IMG/VR virus record: IMGVR_UViG_3300032401_000002
Span: 62,001-126,000 of that record
From: a virus
Length of the DNA: 64,000 nt
Direction: 5' to 3' (one strand)
Below, piece by piece: positions 37,672 through 46,993 of the stretch. The position numbers and the translations under genes are program-made. Position 1 is the first letter of the stretch. Each line of letters opens with the position of its first letter. Under the pieces are notes generated by a model. The model was not told where the DNA came from, ran no database searches, and saw only the letters and a list, made by a program, of their open reading frames with translations.

Positions 37672-38217
37672 CTAGACGAGAAGCTCCACGATGACGGCGT
37701 TAGCTGACAGACGAGTCACTAGACGACCTACGTTGTTGATGACGTTTGCGCCCGCAGTGCCGACGACCTGACCCTTAGCGTTGGACTTGAAGTAGACTTC
37801 GTTGGCTACCGCGCCATCCTCCGCTGCTGCCAGCGCAGAAAGACCCGTGTCATCGAAGGCCGGTGCGAGGATCTCGAAGACCCCACCCGCTCCGCGCCAA
37901 ACACCAACGCGGTCGAAGTCGGTCGGAATGTCGGAAAGCTCTCCACCAACGAAGTTGGCGAACAGCCCAAACGGACGGTTGGAAGCTGCCGCAGCGGCCG
38001 AAACAGTTACAGCCTCTCCGACGAGCTTGTTTGCGACCTGTCCGGGAAGGATGGCCGACTTTGCACCCGTGATGGCAGTACCGCCCGAAAGCGCTCCTGC
38101 TGTACGGACGAAGGCGGAACTAAGCTGCACGTCGTACGGGTACGCCTGCGTCTGTCCATACAGAGCGCGGAGCGTGCGACGGTTGTACTTGTTCGCCAGG
38201 TTGGTTAGTCGTAGCAT
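37672..38217 (-). CDS. Capsid decoration/stabilisation protein candidate
   Basis: 181 aa, ATG 38217, immediately upstream of the major capsid gene. It is Ala/Gly/Val-rich and beta-type. Central stretches are GAKSAILPGQVANKLV and PFGLFANFVGGELSDIPTDFDRVGVWRG, the pattern seen in lambda gpD-like and other decoration proteins of actinophages. No enzymatic motif. Position and composition are the basis. Confidence 0.7.
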   Translation of the reverse strand: MLRLTNLANKYNRRTLRALYGQTQAYPYDVQLSSAFVRTAGALSGGTAITGAKSAILPGQVANKLVGEAVTVSAAAAASNRPFGLFANFVGGELSDIPTDFDRVGVWRGAGGVFEILAPAFDDTGLSALAAAEDGAVANEVYFKSNAKGQVVGTAGANVINNVGRLVTRLSANAVIVELLV

Positions 38218-38302: not shown

Positions 38303-40999
38303 CTAGAAGATTGAGTCCTCGAACTCGTCTTCAACTGCGTGTGCGTCGATGTCGAACGAAGCAACCGGGCGGAAGCTCGGTACTCGTCCTGCTGTCGGTG
38401 CCTTCGTGCTCGTCGCCTTGCGGAGACCAGCGGTCTTGACCTTGGCGTACGCCTCGATCTGGGCGTCAAGCGCCTGAACCGGGGTGTCCTCTAGCTCGGA
38501 CGCGCGGTCGAACTTCGCGTCAGAATCGAGGATGCCTAGCTCGACCTCAGTCTCTGCGACCTTGAGGGCCTTGTAGACCTGAGCCTTGGCGTTCGCTACT
38601 GCGACACCAATCGGGCCACCGACCTCGTTGGAGTTGTCGCCGCCAACAGGGTTAGCACCCTTGAGGCTACGGAACTCTTCACTGGAGTCGGTCTCGGTGG
38701 GGCCACCAACCTCTTCCTTCAGCGATCCGTCAAGCTGGACTCGCGTCGGGTCGTGATCGGGGAAGCCGTGGCCGGGAGAATCCCAGACGCCACTATCGTC
38801 AGCCGTCTTCTCCGTTGCGGAGACGGTGCTGAGCAACTCACCAGCATCACTCGTCACGGCATCCTGCTGACCAAGGCTATCGCCCTCGCCACCACTCCAG
38901 GTGTCCGTGTGGGGCGCGGTGAAGTCGCCCGTGTCCTTCTCTACGTTCTCGTTGTCGATGCCGCTCAGCGGATCTCCAGTGACAGCGCCCACGCCTTCTA
39001 CGTCTACACGCTTGTCAGCCTGGACACCCTCACCATTAGCAGAGGCACCGTCAGCGATCTTTGTCTGTGCGGTCATGTTGTCCTTTCGGGTTTTACTTTC
39101 GACTGGAGCCTTCGAGTCCGTGATAACCTTCTTACCAATCGGCTTGTCTGACAACTGTCGTGTAACAGGAAGGATGGGCCGTTCCTGTGTCTTAATCCGT
39201 CCACCTTGGGCGGAAGTCTTCTCAACCTTTACAGTGGCCGTCTCTGCTACCTTTGATGTGGCAGGCATAGCGCCGCCCGGCATGGGCTTGGGGCTACTCG
39301 GGTCGTTCGGGTTGGTCTGAATATCGTTGGGAGCGCCAGGCTGCTGGCCCTGTGCAGCCTGCTCAGCGTCCTGCTGATGCATCTGCTCATCGACCTCCTT
39401 GGCCTTCTCCAGGTCGGGATTGTCAAAGCCCTCGGGCGGCTCTTCGTAGTTGCAGACTTCGCAGACGCCGTCTTCCATATCGCTACCGCAGATCGGGCAA
39501 ACCTGATCCTGACGAAGTGTGTCTACCTGATCGGGAGCAACCGTCATATCTGACTGCGGCTCGGGGTTACGGTCGGCTGTTACACCACGGCCACGCAAGA
39601 TCTGCCGAATCTCATTTGCGTTCATGCCATACGAACGTGCGATGGCTTCCAAAGACTGGCCCTGTCGGTGAGCCGCCACAACGTCGTCATTCATGTTGGC
39701 CGTCTTGGCTGTTGAGCGATCCTCAAGACCAATCTGTTGTCCGGCTGCATCCCACTCTGCATCTGCTGCCTTCATAGCTGCATTGATTTCTGTCTGCTGC
39801 TCGGGGGAGAGCATGTTCCAGACGGACACGACCGAACCAGTCGAGCCTTCGCCCAGGAAGTCATTGCGATCTCCGGGGGTCTCAACGGTCGGGGTGCCAT
39901 GCTCACCATAAGGGTCATGTCGATCTCCACCCATGGGAACAGCCTGCTTGTTCCGATCAAGATGGTCAACAAGCTCCCAGAGCTTCTGGTATGTGCCAGT
40001 GCTGATTCCACTGAGAGTCTCTGCGACCTCGTCGGGTGTGTAGTAGTCAAGACCTTCGGCGGGCGGGATTGCTCCCTGTGCTCCGACGCCAGGTGCAACA
40101 CCAGCGATGTTGTAGACCGGGACTAGATCTTCCTGCTGTGCTACCTGGACTCCGTACGGGGTCTGGACGTGGTACTGAAGGATGCCACCATTGGCGGTGT
40201 AGTCCACGATCTTGCCGCTCTGGCCAGAGCCGGGGCCTCCACCGATCTGAACCTCTTCGCCAACGCGGAACTGCTGCGCGCCTTCTACCTGGACGGCAGA
40301 CACGCGAGCGGCCTTCTTGATATCGCGCACGAGCGCGGTCTCATCGGCAGGATCGAAGACAAAGCTGATCTCGAAGAAACCAATGTCGTAGCAGTCCTCA
40401 TAGGACTTCTTGGCCACCTTCTGCCCACTCGGTGTGTGGAAGTCAAAGTATGCACCCTTGGACTGGACGTGCTTGCAATATTGCTCGGGCGAGCGGGCTT
40501 CGTTACCGCAGTGTGAGCACTTGCTCAACTCTACGTTCGCACCCATGGACACGCCATCGATGTCGCCATCTACGATAGCCTTGGCGAGCTTGGGGAACTT
40601 CTTGGCATCCACTTCGAGCAGAAGCTCGATCCAGGTTGCCGGAAGGTGATTGGCGGGAGCGGCCGAGTAGTACGGGTCGAGACTTGCTGTCTTCTCGTCC
40701 TCGATGTGCAGGGCTGCGTCCACGATGACACCACGCGCCCGCTTGGGGTCGCTGTTGTGGTGGTCTACGAAGATCGGCTTGCCGATGAAGGTGCGCCAAG
40801 ACTTCTCAAGCTCAGTGGCGGGCCATCCATCGTGGTTCTTGTTGACGCGCGATGAGATCGCTCGCACGCGCACATAGACGTATCCGTCTTCAGTGCGATA
40901 GTCGTCGTACTCAGCGAACTTGGACAACGAAGCAGAGCGCTCCTTAGAGGGAGCGCTCTTGACTTCGAGGACTTCTAGCTTCGCGTACTTCTGGAACAC
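38303..40999 (-). CDS. Prohead protease fused to long scaffold-like region
   Basis: 898 aa, GTG 40999 with AGGGA upstream. Residues ~25-230 look like an S78-type/assemblin-fold prohead protease: FVDHHNSD with His80 and DGDIDGVSMGANV with Ser151. Unusually, a zinc-type Cys cluster (C161, C164, C175) is inserted. Residues 245-295 are a KOW/SH3-like barrel, 439-472 a helix-turn-helix pattern, and 501-516 a zinc ribbon (CPIC...CEVC). The remaining C-terminus is acidic and low complexity, as in scaffolds. Much longer than a usual protease (about 200 aa). Probable head-maturation protease with internal core domain. Confidence 0.8.
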   Translation of the reverse strand: MFQKYAKLEVLEVKSAPSKERSASLSKFAEYDDYRTEDGYVYVRVRAISSRVNKNHDGWPATELEKSWRTFIGKPIFVDHHNSDPKRARGVIVDAALHIEDEKTASLDPYYSAAPANHLPATWIELLLEVDAKKFPKLAKAIVDGDIDGVSMGANVELSKCSHCGNEARSPEQYCKHVQSKGAYFDFHTPSGQKVAKKSYEDCYDIGFFEISFVFDPADETALVRDIKKAARVSAVQVEGAQQFRVGEEVQIGGGPGSGQSGKIVDYTANGGILQYHVQTPYGVQVAQQEDLVPVYNIAGVAPGVGAQGAIPPAEGLDYYTPDEVAETLSGISTGTYQKLWELVDHLDRNKQAVPMGGDRHDPYGEHGTPTVETPGDRNDFLGEGSTGSVVSVWNMLSPEQQTEINAAMKAADAEWDAAGQQIGLEDRSTAKTANMNDDVVAAHRQGQSLEAIARSYGMNANEIRQILRGRGVTADRNPEPQSDMTVAPDQVDTLRQDQVCPICGSDMEDGVCEVCNYEEPPEGFDNPDLEKAKEVDEQMHQQDAEQAAQGQQPGAPNDIQTNPNDPSSPKPMPGGAMPATSKVAETATVKVEKTSAQGGRIKTQERPILPVTRQLSDKPIGKKVITDSKAPVESKTRKDNMTAQTKIADGASANGEGVQADKRVDVEGVGAVTGDPLSGIDNENVEKDTGDFTAPHTDTWSGGEGDSLGQQDAVTSDAGELLSTVSATEKTADDSGVWDSPGHGFPDHDPTRVQLDGSLKEEVGGPTETDSSEEFRSLKGANPVGGDNSNEVGGPIGVAVANAKAQVYKALKVAETEVELGILDSDAKFDRASELEDTPVQALDAQIEAYAKVKTAGLRKATSTKAPTAGRVPSFRPVASFDIDAHAVEDEFEDSIF

Positions 41000-41007
41000 T
41001 GCTGTCC

Positions 41008-41871
41008 CTACTTCGCGATCAGGGTTACAACCGCGATCTTGCTCTCGGGGAGATTGGTGTCCTGACCGTTGACAACGGCAGAGCCGGTGCGTCGGATCTT
41101 GGCCACCGTGTGTGTCGGGTAGAACTGGCGGGCTTCAGCGATGATCTCCTTGTTGCCTACCGAGCCAGTCGTGTTCTGACGAACAACGGTGATCTCAGCC
41201 TGCTTGGAGTTGTAGTGCGCGAACGCACCTACGCCGATGCCAGACTTGGGCTTGACCGGGGGAGGAAGCGGAGGGCCTCCAGCCGGGCCACCGGGAGCGG
41301 GTAGACCGCCACCCTGCGGGGGAGCACCAATGTCGGGAACAGCACCCGGATCACCCAGCGGGTCGCCACCCATACCAGGGTCGCCTCCCATTGGATCGGG
41401 GCCGAGGTCGTCAGGGCCAGCATCGGGGCCGAGGCCACCGCCGCCCTTAACTACGTCGAGTAGCTGCTGGAGGAGTTGGATGATTCCATCGTCGCCCTTG
41501 AGCGGCTTCTCTTCTCCTCCGAGATCGTCGGCGTCTGAATCTCCGTCGCCGAAATCAGGTGCAGGAGAATCAGAAGAGTCGTCATCAGATGACGAGTCGT
41601 CTGCCGGGGGTGAATCAGACGGAGGAGCGTCATCAGACGGCTCCTCTGTGTCGCTGCTGTCGCTGTCGTCAGACGGCGGGAACTCACTCACGCGGATAGT
41701 TGCTGCGAAGACCTGATCTCCAACCTTCACGCCAGCGGCTAGTGCCTCTTCAGCGTCTGCCTTCTTCGCCTTGAGAGAAACAAGGTCGGCATTCGGGTAA
41801 CGAGTCAGGAGAGACTTCGCTGCATCTGCGCGCGAGACGTTTGCCTTGCGGTAGAAAGTTGTGGTTGTCAT
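41008..41871 (-). CDS. Acidic scaffold-like head protein
   Basis: 287 aa from ATG 41871; GGAAG lies five bases upstream. ATG 41883 would add four residues but has no ribosome site. The N-terminal ~60 residues are ordered (RADAAKSLLTRYPNADLVSLKAKKADAEEALA). Then come a long Ser/Asp-rich tract and a Gly/Pro-rich tract (~65-205), then a C-terminal beta domain (AEITVVRQNTTGSVGNKEIIAEARQFYP). It is directly upstream of the protease. Disorder and acidity suit a scaffold or core protein. Confidence 0.7.
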   Translation of the reverse strand: MTTTTFYRKANVSRADAAKSLLTRYPNADLVSLKAKKADAEEALAAGVKVGDQVFAATIRVSEFPPSDDSDSSDTEEPSDDAPPSDSPPADDSSSDDDSSDSPAPDFGDGDSDADDLGGEEKPLKGDDGIIQLLQQLLDVVKGGGGLGPDAGPDDLGPDPMGGDPGMGGDPLGDPGAVPDIGAPPQGGGLPAPGGPAGGPPLPPPVKPKSGIGVGAFAHYNSKQAEITVVRQNTTGSVGNKEIIAEARQFYPTHTVAKIRRTGSAVVNGQDTNLPESKIAVVTLIAK

Positions 41872-41929
41872 TTCCTCTTCCATGTGATTGGTCGTAACTT
41901 AGGTGTCTGCTGTTAGCCTGAACATAGGG

Positions 41930-42685
41930 CTACAGAGAGTCAACCCTTCGTACCTTGCATAGCGGGATCAGTCCAACGTATAGTGGTCTGTTCTCGTGTG
42001 CAGTGCCGCTACCCTCTGTGTTGATGATCGTTCCAGAGAAGTTGGTCTGCAATGTGTGGGTGATCTCGTCGCGTACGTAGAAGAGGTAGTTGATTCCTCC
42101 CTGCGGTAGCTGGATGATCTGTTGGTTGTACGTGTGATTGTGGTTCCCGCCGCCGTGGTTATGGGCAGGTATCTGAGCCAAGGACAAGATTACCTCGTTA
42201 AGTCCTCCCGTAGCCTGGGGGCCGGGTGCTCCTGCTGGCAGGTTGATGTTGCCGTTCCCCACGGCGGCGGCAGCGGTGCCATCGGCCTTATTCAGGTCGG
42301 CACCGATGATTGAACGATTCAGTAGATTCGGTAGGGTGACAGACACCACTACACCAGGGAAGTCATGGTTGACGGCCGATACTACTGAACCATCGCAAAC
42401 AAGGCAGCCGTCAGGGAGTGCAACGGTTGCGTCAGGGCGGAACCAGTGAAACACTGTGCCAATTGGCATAGCGTCTAGCTCCAGAAGTTTGACCTCTCGA
42501 TAGATACCACCATTCGTACCAGTGGTTGGAGGCCAGTCTCCAGCGGGCGGAATCCCAACGATCCCGTCCAGTGTGTCAAAGTTCTGAGTAAGCTCGGTGT
42601 GGTCGTACGAGTCAGTGCCTGCGGGCCATACCCGGAAGCGATGAACGCCCAGACTACCTGAGGGGTTTGACCAACGGTCAGCCAT
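41930..42685 (-). CDS. Tail-fibre tip protein with collar domain
   Basis: 251 aa, ATG 42685 overlapping the endolysin stop (TAATG). The middle has the collar-type segment MPIGTVFHWFRPDATVALPDGCLVCDGS, followed by TLPNLLNRSIIGA. A His-rich HNHGGGNHNHTY stretch that can coordinate metal follows, then the family ending ENRPLYVGLIPLCKVRR. Such domains form metal-stabilised fibre tips. The paralogous fibre at 47258-48493 has the same logic. Probably virion tail fibre or collar. Confidence 0.8.
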   Translation of the reverse strand: MADRWSNPSGSLGVHRFRVWPAGTDSYDHTELTQNFDTLDGIVGIPPAGDWPPTTGTNGGIYREVKLLELDAMPIGTVFHWFRPDATVALPDGCLVCDGSVVSAVNHDFPGVVVSVTLPNLLNRSIIGADLNKADGTAAAAVGNGNINLPAGAPGPQATGGLNEVILSLAQIPAHNHGGGNHNHTYNQQIIQLPQGGINYLFYVRDEITHTLQTNFSGTIINTEGSGTAHENRPLYVGLIPLCKVRRVDSL

Positions 42686-43481: not shown

Positions 43482-46400
43482 TTACCAGTTGAATTGGTCG
43501 TCTGTGCCGTCAACTACGTAGTGCGTGCCGTCAAGGTCTAGGCGATCAAGGTTTCTCGCTTCGCCGCCATCTTCATCGATGAATGCCCTCTGCTCGCGTG
43601 GATCGTAGTCCTTACCGGCCAATTTCGCCATTAAACCCGGATCTACGTCCACACCACCCGTAGAAGTACCCTCCAGAAGCCATGTACGGTCTTCTGGGGC
43701 GTCTCCAGCGTATGCCCCAGTGAATGTGTCAAGTGAGACCATTTCGTCCTCAGAATCGCTTACAGCGCTGTTCTTGGAGTCGAGGTCGGAAATGTCATCC
43801 TGCTGGGGTGCTCCATCCATGCCGGGACGCGGGGGAGCTTCCTGATCCTGGAATCCATCTCCACTGTCCGTGATCTGGTCAGCGGGGGCTGCCGACGTGA
43901 ATGTGGTACCATCTGTGTCTACCTGCTGCTTCGTAAGCTCGTGTCGGTAGGAGACGCCATCACCAGAGTCCACCGTGTAGGTGATCTTGTCTGGGAGAAC
44001 TCTCTCGACTACGATCCGATCTGGGATCGCGAACGCGCCCGTCTTCATCTCGTACTCCTGACCTTCTTCGATCTGAGCGCCCTGATCATCTACCCAAGAC
44101 TGTCCCTTGTCGGGATGATGAAGCTGATGGGGCTGCTGGGCTGCACCAACGCCACCCTCCTGCACTCTCTCTTCGCCTGCGGCGTAGAATGCGAACTCAG
44201 CATCAGTGGCTCCTCGATGGGCGAACATCTCGTCGTAGCTCGGCTGTCCGCGCTCATAGGCTTCATTGATCTCGTCTGATTCTGCGTACGGATTGAAAGC
44301 CTGTGCCTGATCATCCTGACCAAAGGAGATGCCGCACTGTCGGCACTGGTTCTGACCAGGGCCTGTTTCTACACCAGGGCCACCGCAAGCCGGGCAAATC
44401 GAGCCAGGCATGTCGGTGTCGTTATGAAAGTCAGATTCTGCAATCCAGTTGCCAACCTTGGTGACAACCTTGGTGGGCTGAATCGCTGGGCCAATTGGCC
44501 CGGAAGCTGTGCCGGGGGCAACCTGATTCCCCTGCTGCGCAAGCTGCTGCTGCATGCTCGCATCAGGGCACGGGGTGCCAGCAATGTGGGACTGGCCACA
44601 CATCGGGCAAGTCGGATTCTGTCCTACAGGTACGCCTGCCGCCTGGCCTGCGCCCGGCTGCGCGAACTGCATCGGCGCGACACCAGCCATGCCAGCTTCC
44701 TTGATGCTTTCTCGCGAGGCGTCACATTCATCGCAGTGGCAATCTGACTCGTGCTCGGTAACGTCGTCATCGTCGTCATCGCTCGCTAGGTAGTCCCAGA
44801 GCGAAGCCTCCTTGGGCTTCTTCTCGTTGGCCTTCGGCTCGTCATCCGATGCTTCATCCGAGTCGTCTGAGTCATCCGACCCCTCATCCGAGATAGCCTC
44901 TTCTAGTGGCGATGTACCATCTTCCTGATCAAGACCATCCTTGTATCCGGGGAAGGCTTCTTCAAGGAGTGAATCTAGAGCTACCAAGATCGGGTTGTTA
45001 GTGCCCGGCTCGTCTGAGTCAGCAAACTCCATCACGAGCGGGAGGTTCAGGTGGAAAGCCTTCATGGCCTTGTCCTGCATCTCAGGATCGCCGTGACTGT
45101 TGATATCCTTGTCGGGGCCGTCAGGCGACTTGCCACCGCCTGTACCGTCAACATCCTTCAACTGCTCGGGGCCGTCACCCTGCTCCTTCTTGCCGCCGAT
45201 GCCGCTGTCTGAAGCCTCATCTGTGGAGTTGGTACCGTCGTTCTTGGTTGCCCAACCATCTTCTTCTTCGCCGAAAGTGTCGGCCGTCTTGGAGACGAGT
45301 CCGATCTGCGAGGTATCGGTAGGATCTAGCGGGGCTGCACCGGGTGCGCCACCGCCTCCACCTTGACCACCAGGGGATACAATGTTCCTACCTACACCCT
45401 GGACAGCACCCTGACCTAGCGCGCGGGTCATCATTCCACCTACGCCCGCCATGCCGCCAGCTTCTGCACCGGCTGCCGCTGCGCCGCCGCCAATGCCCAA
45501 CGCCTCACCGACACCCATCAGGGCAGGGATAGCGAGAGGGGCTGCTGTGACTTGCTGTGTGTGACCGCACGTATGACATACAGACGTGGATGCCTGCCTA
45601 ATCATCGGGGAGTAACACTCGGGACAACTATCGAGGGGCGCTGCGTTGGCCTTGTGCCAAGCTAGCTCTTCATCGATGTGTGCGAAATACTCGGGCTTCA
45701 AGTTGATGTGTCCTCCACGTTGATGTTGGTACTGCATGATCTGATTCCAGGCATCGCGCTTCTGCCCTGGAGACCAATCCGCTGTAGCACCAGGCATCAC
45801 AGTGATAGTATGGGAGTTCGGTTCAATCTTTAGGTAGTTGCCTGTCTCGACTTTGTTGTACTCGCCCTTGATGTCGAGGATCACAGGAATGCCCTCGGTG
45901 GTCGCCAGAACGGCCGCATGTGAGGTCATACCACCCGTTGCGGTGATGATTGCGCGCACACCTTTCTGCCATAGCATGAAGTCTTCAGGCTGAAGATGTT
46001 CGGCCACCAAGATAGCGTTCGGGGTGATCTCACCGTTCGAGCGTTCCTTGACCCAGGCGACTCCGGTGATGACTTCACCTTGCTGTTGGGGAGAGATGAT
46101 CCACGTTCCTCCATGAATCTCGACGGGCTGGAATACCTGGCCCTTGCCCTGCGAGGGCGCTCCACCAATCGGGCCATGAAGAGTGATGTTGGCACCAAAG
46201 GCTTGTTCGATCTGCTGCTGCGCTGACTCTTGGTTGAACTGTGTTCCGGGGAACACCCTCTGCACGTCGGCCGTGCCATCGTTGTAGACTGACCCAAGAG
46301 CGGCACAATCTTGCGGGTACCGAAGTCCGTTGCGCTCCGCTAGCTTCTCATGCACTGCATGAACACCATGCTCAAAGTGCATCTGACCTTGCTTGTCGAT

Positions 46401-46964
46401 AATCCACTTACCGATCTCGACCTTCATGTTCGCATCGCCTGAGAACATAGCGTCCCAGTCTTCTGCGGTGACCGTGCGGCTCGCAATCTTCTGGGCCATC
46501 TTCCAGGTCGCCAAGTTCATGGACGGATACGAGTCATCTGTCTTCATGCGGTTGCGCTTCGGCTCGCGCTCGGGCATGCCGTCTAGGTGATGCTCCTGCG
46601 GTGCCGGGTCGTTGTAGACGAACTCGTCGTCTTTCTTGTTCCACTCAGGAGTCAGGTCTTTGCCGCATGTGGGGCATGCCCGCAAATCCGTGCTTTCTTG
46701 GCACAATGGGCAGTTGACAACTGTATTGCCCGTGAATCCGTGCATTGCAGCCATGTGCCCTTCAAGCTCGGGAACGCCAGCTAGCTCGGAGTGTTCTAGC
46801 TGATTCTGGTTGAACAAGTCGTTGTCACCACCAGTCGAGTGACCACGGTCAGGCCCAAGCCCGTTGTCGGGAGCTTTGATGTAGGTCTTCGACTCGGGTT
46901 CCCAGATCCAGACTGTGCCGGGATCTGTAGGATCGCTGAAGCTAGGCATGGGTAGATCGGGCAT
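43482..46964 (-). CDS. Zinc-ribbon protein with PEP-utiliser phosphohistidine domain
   Basis: 1160 aa from ATG 46964 (AAAGGG five bases upstream; GTG 46970 is the alternative). Zinc ribbon C85-C88-C97-C100. About residues 255-392 contain a PEP-utilising mobile domain: ILVAEHLQPED, then ATGGMTSHAAVLATTEGIPVIL with His349 in the phospho-acceptor position. A second zinc ribbon follows (C447, C450, C463, C466), then a Gly/Ala-rich hydrophobic stretch near 480-530, acidic linkers and further Cys-x-x-Cys pairs. I do not see the ATP-grasp or PEP-binding partner domains, so catalysis is uncertain. It lies between fibre and endolysin genes in the late block. Confidence 0.75.
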   Translation of the reverse strand: MPDLPMPSFSDPTDPGTVWIWEPESKTYIKAPDNGLGPDRGHSTGGDNDLFNQNQLEHSELAGVPELEGHMAAMHGFTGNTVVNCPLCQESTDLRACPTCGKDLTPEWNKKDDEFVYNDPAPQEHHLDGMPEREPKRNRMKTDDSYPSMNLATWKMAQKIASRTVTAEDWDAMFSGDANMKVEIGKWIIDKQGQMHFEHGVHAVHEKLAERNGLRYPQDCAALGSVYNDGTADVQRVFPGTQFNQESAQQQIEQAFGANITLHGPIGGAPSQGKGQVFQPVEIHGGTWIISPQQQGEVITGVAWVKERSNGEITPNAILVAEHLQPEDFMLWQKGVRAIITATGGMTSHAAVLATTEGIPVILDIKGEYNKVETGNYLKIEPNSHTITVMPGATADWSPGQKRDAWNQIMQYQHQRGGHINLKPEYFAHIDEELAWHKANAAPLDSCPECYSPMIRQASTSVCHTCGHTQQVTAAPLAIPALMGVGEALGIGGGAAAAGAEAGGMAGVGGMMTRALGQGAVQGVGRNIVSPGGQGGGGGAPGAAPLDPTDTSQIGLVSKTADTFGEEEDGWATKNDGTNSTDEASDSGIGGKKEQGDGPEQLKDVDGTGGGKSPDGPDKDINSHGDPEMQDKAMKAFHLNLPLVMEFADSDEPGTNNPILVALDSLLEEAFPGYKDGLDQEDGTSPLEEAISDEGSDDSDDSDEASDDEPKANEKKPKEASLWDYLASDDDDDDVTEHESDCHCDECDASRESIKEAGMAGVAPMQFAQPGAGQAAGVPVGQNPTCPMCGQSHIAGTPCPDASMQQQLAQQGNQVAPGTASGPIGPAIQPTKVVTKVGNWIAESDFHNDTDMPGSICPACGGPGVETGPGQNQCRQCGISFGQDDQAQAFNPYAESDEINEAYERGQPSYDEMFAHRGATDAEFAFYAAGEERVQEGGVGAAQQPHQLHHPDKGQSWVDDQGAQIEEGQEYEMKTGAFAIPDRIVVERVLPDKITYTVDSGDGVSYRHELTKQQVDTDGTTFTSAAPADQITDSGDGFQDQEAPPRPGMDGAPQQDDISDLDSKNSAVSDSEDEMVSLDTFTGAYAGDAPEDRTWLLEGTSTGGVDVDPGLMAKLAGKDYDPREQRAFIDEDGGEARNLDRLDLDGTHYVVDGTDDQFNW

Positions 46965-46993
46965 GGTCACCCTTTAGGGCCTAGCTATGAGAG

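What the first reader, a model, noticed from the sequence alone, without database searches (positions are those of the whole stretch)
43482..46964. Phosphohistidine swivel domain in a late phage protein
The segment ATGGMTSHAAVLATTEGIPVIL keeps the swivelling phosphohistidine motif of PEP-utilising enzymes (PPDK, PEP synthase, rifampin phosphotransferase), with His349 in place. The usual ATP-grasp and substrate domains are not seen; instead the flanks are zinc ribbons and disordered acidic linkers. I know of no described phage virion protein with this layout. It may accept a phosphoryl group from a host enzyme, or use the fold structurally.
Basis: partly seen in the sequence, partly recalled or inferred. 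Interest (0 to 1): 0.65.

Follow-up and report, generated by a model that had tools for sequence, protein, structure and literature searches.

The report
Swivel domain inserted in phage head-gene protein
A phage, probably of actinobacteria, carries a real 'swivelling' phosphate-carrier domain, normally part of bacterial sugar-metabolism enzymes, inserted in a large patchwork protein encoded beside its capsid genes; relatives of that protein carry other inserted domains, so it looks like a slot for passenger domains whose purpose is untested.

Summary
The ORF (43482-46964, minus strand, 1160 aa) contains a PEP-utiliser swivel domain (Pfam PF00391, E 7e-15), with the predicted His349 in place and no ATP-grasp or PEP-binding partner in the protein or the 150-kb virus record.

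The protein is not an isolated oddity. Its last ~50 residues end in a motif ([KR]xAG...EQ...E...ARN-D-L-L-GTHY) shared with 36 other proteins, including Bixzunavirus gp89 ('LysM-like endolysin'), Myrna gp96, Gordonia Pupper gp93 and Rhodococcus E3 gp76. Where gene order is resolved, these lie just before the capsid maturation protease, minor coat and major capsid genes. The rest of each protein varies: LysM, SWIM, GNAT, 2'-5' RNA-ligase-like and zinc ribbons.

The swivel domain sits in a ~250-residue insertion at a place where two relatives have none. It is found in this phage and one diverged relative (whole slot protein 45% identical), which keeps GGxTSHAA.

Best reading: a modular, probably head-packaged passenger protein whose conserved tail is the assembly address. 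The swivel domain would act in trans on a host PEP enzyme, as phosphate acceptor or binder. Packaging and phosphorylation are inferred, not shown. AlphaFold of the insert failed. New variant of a known kind.

The parts
43482..46964 (-). Whole slot protein, 1160 aa from ATG (1162 aa if GTG at 46970 is used)
   Evidence: ORF list; AAAGGG Shine-Dalgarno-like sequence before ATG 46964
46665..46712 (-). Zinc ribbon 1 (CPLC...CPTC, aa 87-102)
   Evidence: sequence; weak DZR hit E 0.08; DZR E 1e-6 in the relative L154
45681..46478 (-). Approximate insertion (aa ~165-430) absent from the nearest slot relatives L017 and L018, between DDSYPSM and the second zinc ribbon
   Evidence: DDS[FY]PS motif and second ribbon ~40 aa (L018) or ~20 aa (L017) apart in relatives versus 304 here (L017 sequence); jackhmmer and blastp of flanks. 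Borders are approximate
46185..46433 (-). Small unnamed domain before the swivel domain (aa 180-262, EIGKWIIDKQGQMHF...ALGSV)
   Evidence: conserved with L154, 41% identity; no Pfam or PHROG match
45783..46118 (-). PEP-utiliser swivelling phosphohistidine domain (aa ~285-396)
   Evidence: PF00391 E 7e-15; L154 E 4e-16; PDB profile hits; 58% identity to L154 over this span
45918..45920 (-). Codon of the phospho-accepting histidine (His349 from ATG)
   Evidence: CAT codon; invariant in alignments A4 and A6
45567..45626 (-). Zinc ribbon 2 (CPEC...CHTC, aa 449-468)
   Evidence: 44% identity to the ribbon in L018
45366..45542 (-). Gly/Ala-rich hydrophobic stretch, resembling those in Bixzunavirus gp89 and Skog gp157 by eye
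   Evidence: sequence comparison by eye
44691..45203 (-). Acidic, low-complexity linker region
   Evidence: sequence
44334..44396 (-). Zinc ribbon 3 (CPAC...CRQC, aa 859-879)
   Evidence: sequence; shared with L019
43884..44096 (-). Small SH3-like beta-barrel (aa 959-1029)
   Evidence: AlphaFold pLDDT about 90 over this span; weak Foldseek matches to small barrels of the NdhS and Tudor type; conserved with L018, L019, L020
43485..43634 (-). Conserved C-terminal tail (AGKDYDPREQ...ARNLDRLDLDGTHY...), proposed assembly address
   Evidence: tblastn to Bixzunavirus, Myrna, Gordonia and Rhodococcus phages; 6 invariant and 6 near-invariant residues in 37 proteins, all but two of them in the tail; one tail per genome
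42685..43473 (-). Endolysin gene next downstream
   Evidence: PHROGs lysis families, E 8e-26
41930..42685 (-). Tail-collar fibre gene
   Evidence: PHROGs E 2e-11
41008..41883 (-). 291-aa protein in the position seen before the protease in this clade
   Evidence: gene order in relatives
38303..40999 (-). Capsid maturation protease / scaffold-like protein
   Evidence: 46% identity to Alice gp90 N-terminus; PHROG head maturation protease 5e-21
37672..38217 (-). Minor coat protein (Myrna gp98 / Alice gp91 type)
   Evidence: about 30% identity to Alice gp91; Myrna gp98 assigned as minor capsid protein in PMC7150772
36580..37629 (-). Major capsid protein
   Evidence: 54% identity to Alice major head protein

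Best explanation
The gene encodes a modular protein of the phage head-assembly cluster. Its conserved C-terminal tail most likely binds it to the prohead, and the capsid maturation protease most likely cuts near the tail, so that the body is packaged and enters the host with the DNA. The body is a carrier of interchangeable passenger domains. In this phage and one diverged relative a phosphohistidine swivel domain, with a small unnamed domain before it, was inserted between two existing segments. With no kinase or PEP-binding partner in the virus, the swivel domain most likely acts in trans: it docks on a host PEP enzyme (enzyme I, PEP synthase or PPDK) and accepts its phosphoryl group or blocks its own swivel domain, damping host PEP or PTS flux early in infection. 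Shown: the domain, its histidine, the insertion, the family and the gene context. Inferred: packaging (about 0.65), processing (about 0.5), action on a host PEP enzyme (about 0.35), actual phosphorylation (about 0.3).
For: Swivel domain with catalytic motif. Kept with GGSTSHAA in a relative at 58% identity over the domain. No partner domains in the virus. Common tail and gene position in 37 slot proteins. Passenger variety: LysM, GNAT, 2'-5' RNA ligase/LigT, DUF7178, SWIM, zinc ribbons. Insertion relative to L017/L018. The motif [KR][TSVILM]A[GASDE] is enriched over shuffles 5.0-fold in 24 protease proteins and 3.0-fold in 36 slot proteins (2.4-fold without the tail), against 1.7-fold in 520 other ORFs; [KR]xAG precedes the tail in 26 of 37. 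A bacterial genome holding a relative phage's capsid gene encodes three PPDK/PEPS-length PF00391 proteins and one enzyme I, so donors exist. MCP tree: the two swivel-bearing phages fall in one supported clade of six.
Against: No virion mass spectrometry for this family could be read; the E3 proteome paper is not held. The tail could serve assembly without packaging. The cleavage motif was chosen by eye on a few of these proteins before being counted on the wider set, and it is also 1.7-fold enriched in other ORFs. This phage's copy has Thr where PPDK and the relative have Arg six residues after the His (HAAVLAT versus HAALIAR), which may weaken catalysis. The fold prediction of the insert failed. 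Only two distinct proteins carry the domain, so conservation of the histidine rests on one comparison.
Confidence: 0.45

Rival explanations
1. The swivel fold is used only structurally, as a spacer or binding module in a virion or assembly protein, with no phosphoryl transfer; the TSH motif is kept because the loop is part of the fold.
For: No phosphoryl donor or acceptor domain in the virus; the PEP-utiliser domain at the C-terminus of a bacterial pyruvate kinase (2e28), which lies outside that enzyme's own active site (established knowledge), is among the nearest solved matches; Thr replaces the usual Arg in this copy.
Against: The motif from ITATGG to SHAA is almost unchanged between two proteins that are only 45% identical overall, and His is kept.
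Confidence: 0.35
2. The slot protein is an assembly factor (scaffold-like or protease-associated) that is not retained in the virion; passenger domains act in the infected cell late in infection.
For: The gene lies upstream of the protease in all resolved relatives; disordered acidic linkers are common in scaffold proteins (established knowledge); candidate cleavage motifs are dense.
Against: LysM and other passenger domains suit entry or early infection better than assembly.
Confidence: 0.25
3. The domain is an annotation artefact: chimeric assembly or a chance motif.
For: The near relatives L017, L018 and others lack it.
Against: Open frame throughout; found in an identical separate IMG/VR fragment and in a diverged relative present in two further contigs; G+C of the insert 55% against 57% of the window; E 7e-15.
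Confidence: 0.01

Closest known systems
Phosphohistidine (swivel) domain of PEP synthase, PPDK, enzyme I and rifampin phosphotransferase (Pfam PF00391)
   Same: Domain sequence, GG-x-TSHAA loop and catalytic-position histidine
   Different: No ATP-grasp, PEP-binding or substrate-binding domain in the protein or the virus record; joined instead to zinc ribbons, linkers and a phage tail motif
Bixzunavirus gp89 / Myrna gp96 / Gordonia Pupper gp93 / Rhodococcus E3 gp76 ('LysM-like endolysin')
   Same: C-terminal tail, gene position before capsid protease, minor coat and MCP, large size, Gly/Ala-rich stretch, low complexity
   Different: No swivel domain; SWIM-like or LysM domain instead; N-terminal region of these proteins (GPG..V.SET.RGR...STIQP) is absent here
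Polyvalent proteins (Iyer et al. 2017, PMC5512222)
   Same: Large phage multidomain protein with varying enzymatic and nucleic-acid-type domains near virion genes; GNAT also listed there
   Different: No hallmark polyvalent domain found here (zincin peptidase, ART, ParB-like); the paper's text has no mention of phosphohistidine, phosphoenolpyruvate or the mobile domain
'Pyruvate phosphate dikinase' genes of Vibrio, Stenotrophomonas and Rhodobacter phages (phrog_18609)
   Same: Phage-borne PEP-utiliser domain
   Different: Separate 650-730-aa gene annotated as PPDK, next to or near a tyrosine-phosphatase gene, not part of a head-cluster protein
T4 internal proteins with capsid-targeting sequence (from memory)
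   Same: Proposed logic: terminal address, cleavage by prohead protease, packaging, injection
   Different: T4's address is N-terminal; here the shared element is C-terminal; no sequence relation claimed

Membership tests
PEP-utiliser swivel (phosphohistidine) domain | Significant profile match over most of the domain | tested here: met
   PF00391 positions 2-65 of 72, E 7e-15; profile search of PDB
PEP-utiliser swivel (phosphohistidine) domain | Catalytic histidine in GG-x-T/S-SH loop | tested here: met
   GGMTSH, and GGSTSH in the relative
PEP-utiliser swivel (phosphohistidine) domain | Three-layer beta/beta/alpha fold | tested here: inconclusive
   AlphaFold mean pLDDT 39.5
PEP-utiliser swivel (phosphohistidine) domain | Phosphorylation of the histidine | not testable with these tools
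   needs biochemistry
PPDK / PEP synthase / rifampin phosphotransferase / enzyme I enzymes | ATP-grasp or PEP-binding partner domain | tested here: not met
   PF01326 and PF02896 absent from G000, G037, G038
Bixzunavirus gp89 / Myrna gp96 slot-protein family | C-terminal tail motif | tested here: met
   tblastn and 37-protein alignment; T, H, Y, two Leu and one Glu invariant
Bixzunavirus gp89 / Myrna gp96 slot-protein family | Gene just upstream of capsid protease, minor coat, MCP | tested here: met
   same order, with endolysin, collar and 291-aa genes between
Bixzunavirus gp89 / Myrna gp96 slot-protein family | Alignable N-terminal half | tested here: not met
   blastp of the window protein to gp89 aligns significantly in the tail only; common descent rests on tail plus position
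Polyvalent proteins | Several distinct enzymatic domains in one protein | tested here: inconclusive
   one enzymatic-type domain here; two (swivel and GNAT) in L154
Polyvalent proteins | Delivery into the host with the phage genome | not testable with these tools
   needs virion proteomics and delivery assay
Virion protein | Presence in purified particles | not testable with these tools
   E3 proteome paper not held; no other proteome found

The most novel reading that the evidence does not exclude
Large phages of actinobacteria keep a cargo-delivery platform next to the capsid protease: any domain fused ahead of a ~45-residue C-terminal address is packaged, trimmed and injected. In this lineage the cargo is a solitary phosphohistidine swivel domain that drains or blocks phosphoryl flow through a host PEP enzyme.
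Probability: 0.2. Interest if true: 0.8.

Novelty: new variant of a known kind. Interest (0 to 1): 0.5.

Why it matters
If the tail is a packaging address, it would explain why one gene position in this large group of phages holds such different proteins, many annotated as 'LysM-like endolysin', and would give a tag for putting proteins into phage heads and a way to list injected proteins by searching for the tail. A solitary swivel domain would be a new way for a phage to touch central carbon metabolism: by its phosphate carrier rather than a whole enzyme.

Tried and rejected
Full-length tblastn and megablast against phage records gave nothing, because the shared tail is short; splitting the protein found it. 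A Pseudomonas PaMx28 match to the tail lies on the strand opposite to the annotated gene there and was dropped as chance. A DNA-pattern scan for GGMTSHAAV in viral contigs gave 14 loci: PPDK-type proteins (one of them a fragment) and one copy of this contig. Scans with the insert found only this phage and G037/G038. AlphaFold of the insert, with 11 sequences, failed; no fold search was made with it. AlphaFold of the C-terminus gave a good small barrel but a low-confidence tail, so the tail's structure is unknown. The idea that the protein is an endolysin was rejected: a separate endolysin gene lies next to it and LysM occurs in only 4 of 37 slot proteins. Literature searches for a phage virion protein with this domain found none, but the library lacks most subscription journals.

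Full report
WHAT WAS CHECKED. The finding concerns an ORF on the minus strand at 43482-46970. The window is positions 62001-126000 of a 150,167-base virus record, G000. Pfam PF00391 matches aa 316-380 with E 7e-15. No other Pfam family passes its cut-off. PDB sequences of PEP synthase, enzyme I, PPDK and a pyruvate kinase with the extra C-terminal domain match weakly by single sequence and clearly by a two-sequence profile. So the domain is real.

NO PARTNER. In rifampin phosphotransferase, PEPS and PPDK the swivel domain shuttles between an ATP-grasp domain and a substrate domain (PMC4844700). Neither PF01326 nor PF02896 is found in this virus record or in the two relatives' contigs, nor HPr in this record. 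The records may be incomplete. Any phosphate must therefore come from a host enzyme. A 'Candidatus Solirubrobacter pratensis' genome, which holds a relative's capsid gene at 73% identity, encodes three PF00391 proteins of 887-896 aa and one enzyme I. That is the host genome of a relative, not proven for this phage.

WHAT THE PROTEIN IS. Full-length searches found nothing. The C-terminal half alone matched the C-termini of proteins in 193 Mycobacterium phage records and two Rhodococcus phage records; the tail alone added Gordonia phages and Finch. In Alice, Tonenili, Myrna, Pupper, Skog, E3 and Finch the gene lies between the portal and the capsid protease, minor coat and major capsid genes. 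In the window the capsid protein (54% identity), the minor-coat homologue and the protease lie downstream in the same order, with endolysin, tail-collar and a 291-aa gene between; the portal lies elsewhere in the genome. Myrna gp98, the homologue of window 37672-38217, has been assigned as minor capsid protein (PMC7150772).

THE FAMILY. A scan with the tail alignment gave 36 loci and one with the major capsid protein 80 more. Thirty-seven slot proteins align; E1133, L1144, L1146, T1149, H1150 and Y1151 (numbered as in alignment A3) are invariant, and the mean column identity is only 11%. The tail occurs once in this genome. The bodies differ: zinc ribbons in several, LysM in 4, and single cases of GNAT, 2'-5' RNA ligase/LigT with DUF7178, and SWIM. 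The swivel domain is in two. A search of 80 records of tail or capsid relatives found PF00391 over its cut-off only in G037 and G038, which carry the same protein.

AN INSERTION. In the relatives L018 and L017 a DDSFPS motif is followed within about 40 and 20 residues by the second zinc ribbon. In the window and L154 the same two landmarks are about 300 and 365 residues apart and enclose the swivel domain (sequences; jackhmmer support for the ribbon). The capsid tree puts the two swivel-bearing phages in one supported clade of six (100/98), sister to a clade whose four members with a readable slot protein lack the domain. One gain on that branch is the simplest reading; the other four members of the clade are fragments without a readable slot gene. 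L154 has in addition a GNAT domain after the ribbon: a second insertion at a nearby place.

THE HISTIDINE. The window and L154 share 58% of residues over the swivel domain and 68% over the last 82 residues; whole-protein identity is 45%. ITATGG-x-TSHAA is kept. One residue speaks for caution: the Arg of HAAxxAR in PPDK and L154 is Thr in the window.

PROCESSING. Reading the sequences suggested a recurrent (K/R)(T/I/V/L)A(G/A/S/D) motif. It was then counted: 168 observed against 34 shuffled in 24 protease proteins, 119 against 40 in the 36 other slot proteins (82 against 34 without the tail), and 360 against 207 in 520 other ORFs. [KR]xAG directly precedes the tail in 26 of 37. This fits a maturation-protease site, but the motif was picked by eye and no cleavage data were seen.

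STRUCTURE. The insert was predicted with 11 sequences and failed (mean pLDDT 39.5). The C-terminal 223 residues gave one confident small beta-barrel, aa 959-1029, with weak matches to SH3-like barrels; the tail itself was low-confidence.

LITERATURE. The polyvalent-protein survey (PMC5512222) describes similar mosaic phage proteins with GNAT and other domains near virion genes, but its text has no phosphohistidine, phosphoenolpyruvate or mobile domain. No phage virion protein with this domain was found in the held papers.

CONCLUSION. The protein is a new variant of a known kind: a member, by tail and gene position, of a mosaic head-cluster protein family of large actinobacteriophages and uncultured relatives, here with a solitary swivel domain as passenger. 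Packaging, processing and phosphorylation are inferences that can be tested in laboratory phages.

Noticed in passing
L003:12641-13990 (-), same genome: A 449-aa protein carries the SWIM-like zinc-finger region (35% identity) that in Alice gp89 lies inside the slot protein: a passenger that is fused in one phage and a separate gene in another.
   Followed up: partly
L154:3227-8050 (+): The swivel-bearing relative's slot protein also contains a GNAT acetyltransferase domain at aa ~731-786.
   Followed up: partly
L025:4460-10162 (+): Slot protein of 1901 aa with 2'-5' RNA ligase/LigT phosphoesterase and DUF7178 domains plus the common tail.
   Followed up: partly
L009:16332-20147, L010, L014: Names such as 'LysM-like endolysin' for these proteins look doubtful: only 4 of 37 slot proteins have LysM and no lytic domain was found.
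   Followed up: partly
L149 (NZ_AUEK01000007.1, 602,736-base contig): A relative's capsid cluster lies inside a large contig of 'Candidatus Solirubrobacter pratensis', a possible host or integrated phage for this group.
   Followed up: no
L004:3482-5830 (-): The portal gene of this phage lies about 75 kb from the capsid gene, unlike in Alice where it is close by.
   Followed up: no
L067:4303-6507, L068:1366-3441, L069:4912-6855: Rhodobacter, Vibrio and Stenotrophomonas phages carry a PPDK-like gene next to or near a tyrosine-phosphatase gene; their function is unexplained.
   Followed up: no
window 38303-40999 and relatives: [KR][TSVILM]A[GASDE] is five-fold enriched in 24 capsid-protease proteins, a candidate self-cleavage site.
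   Followed up: partly
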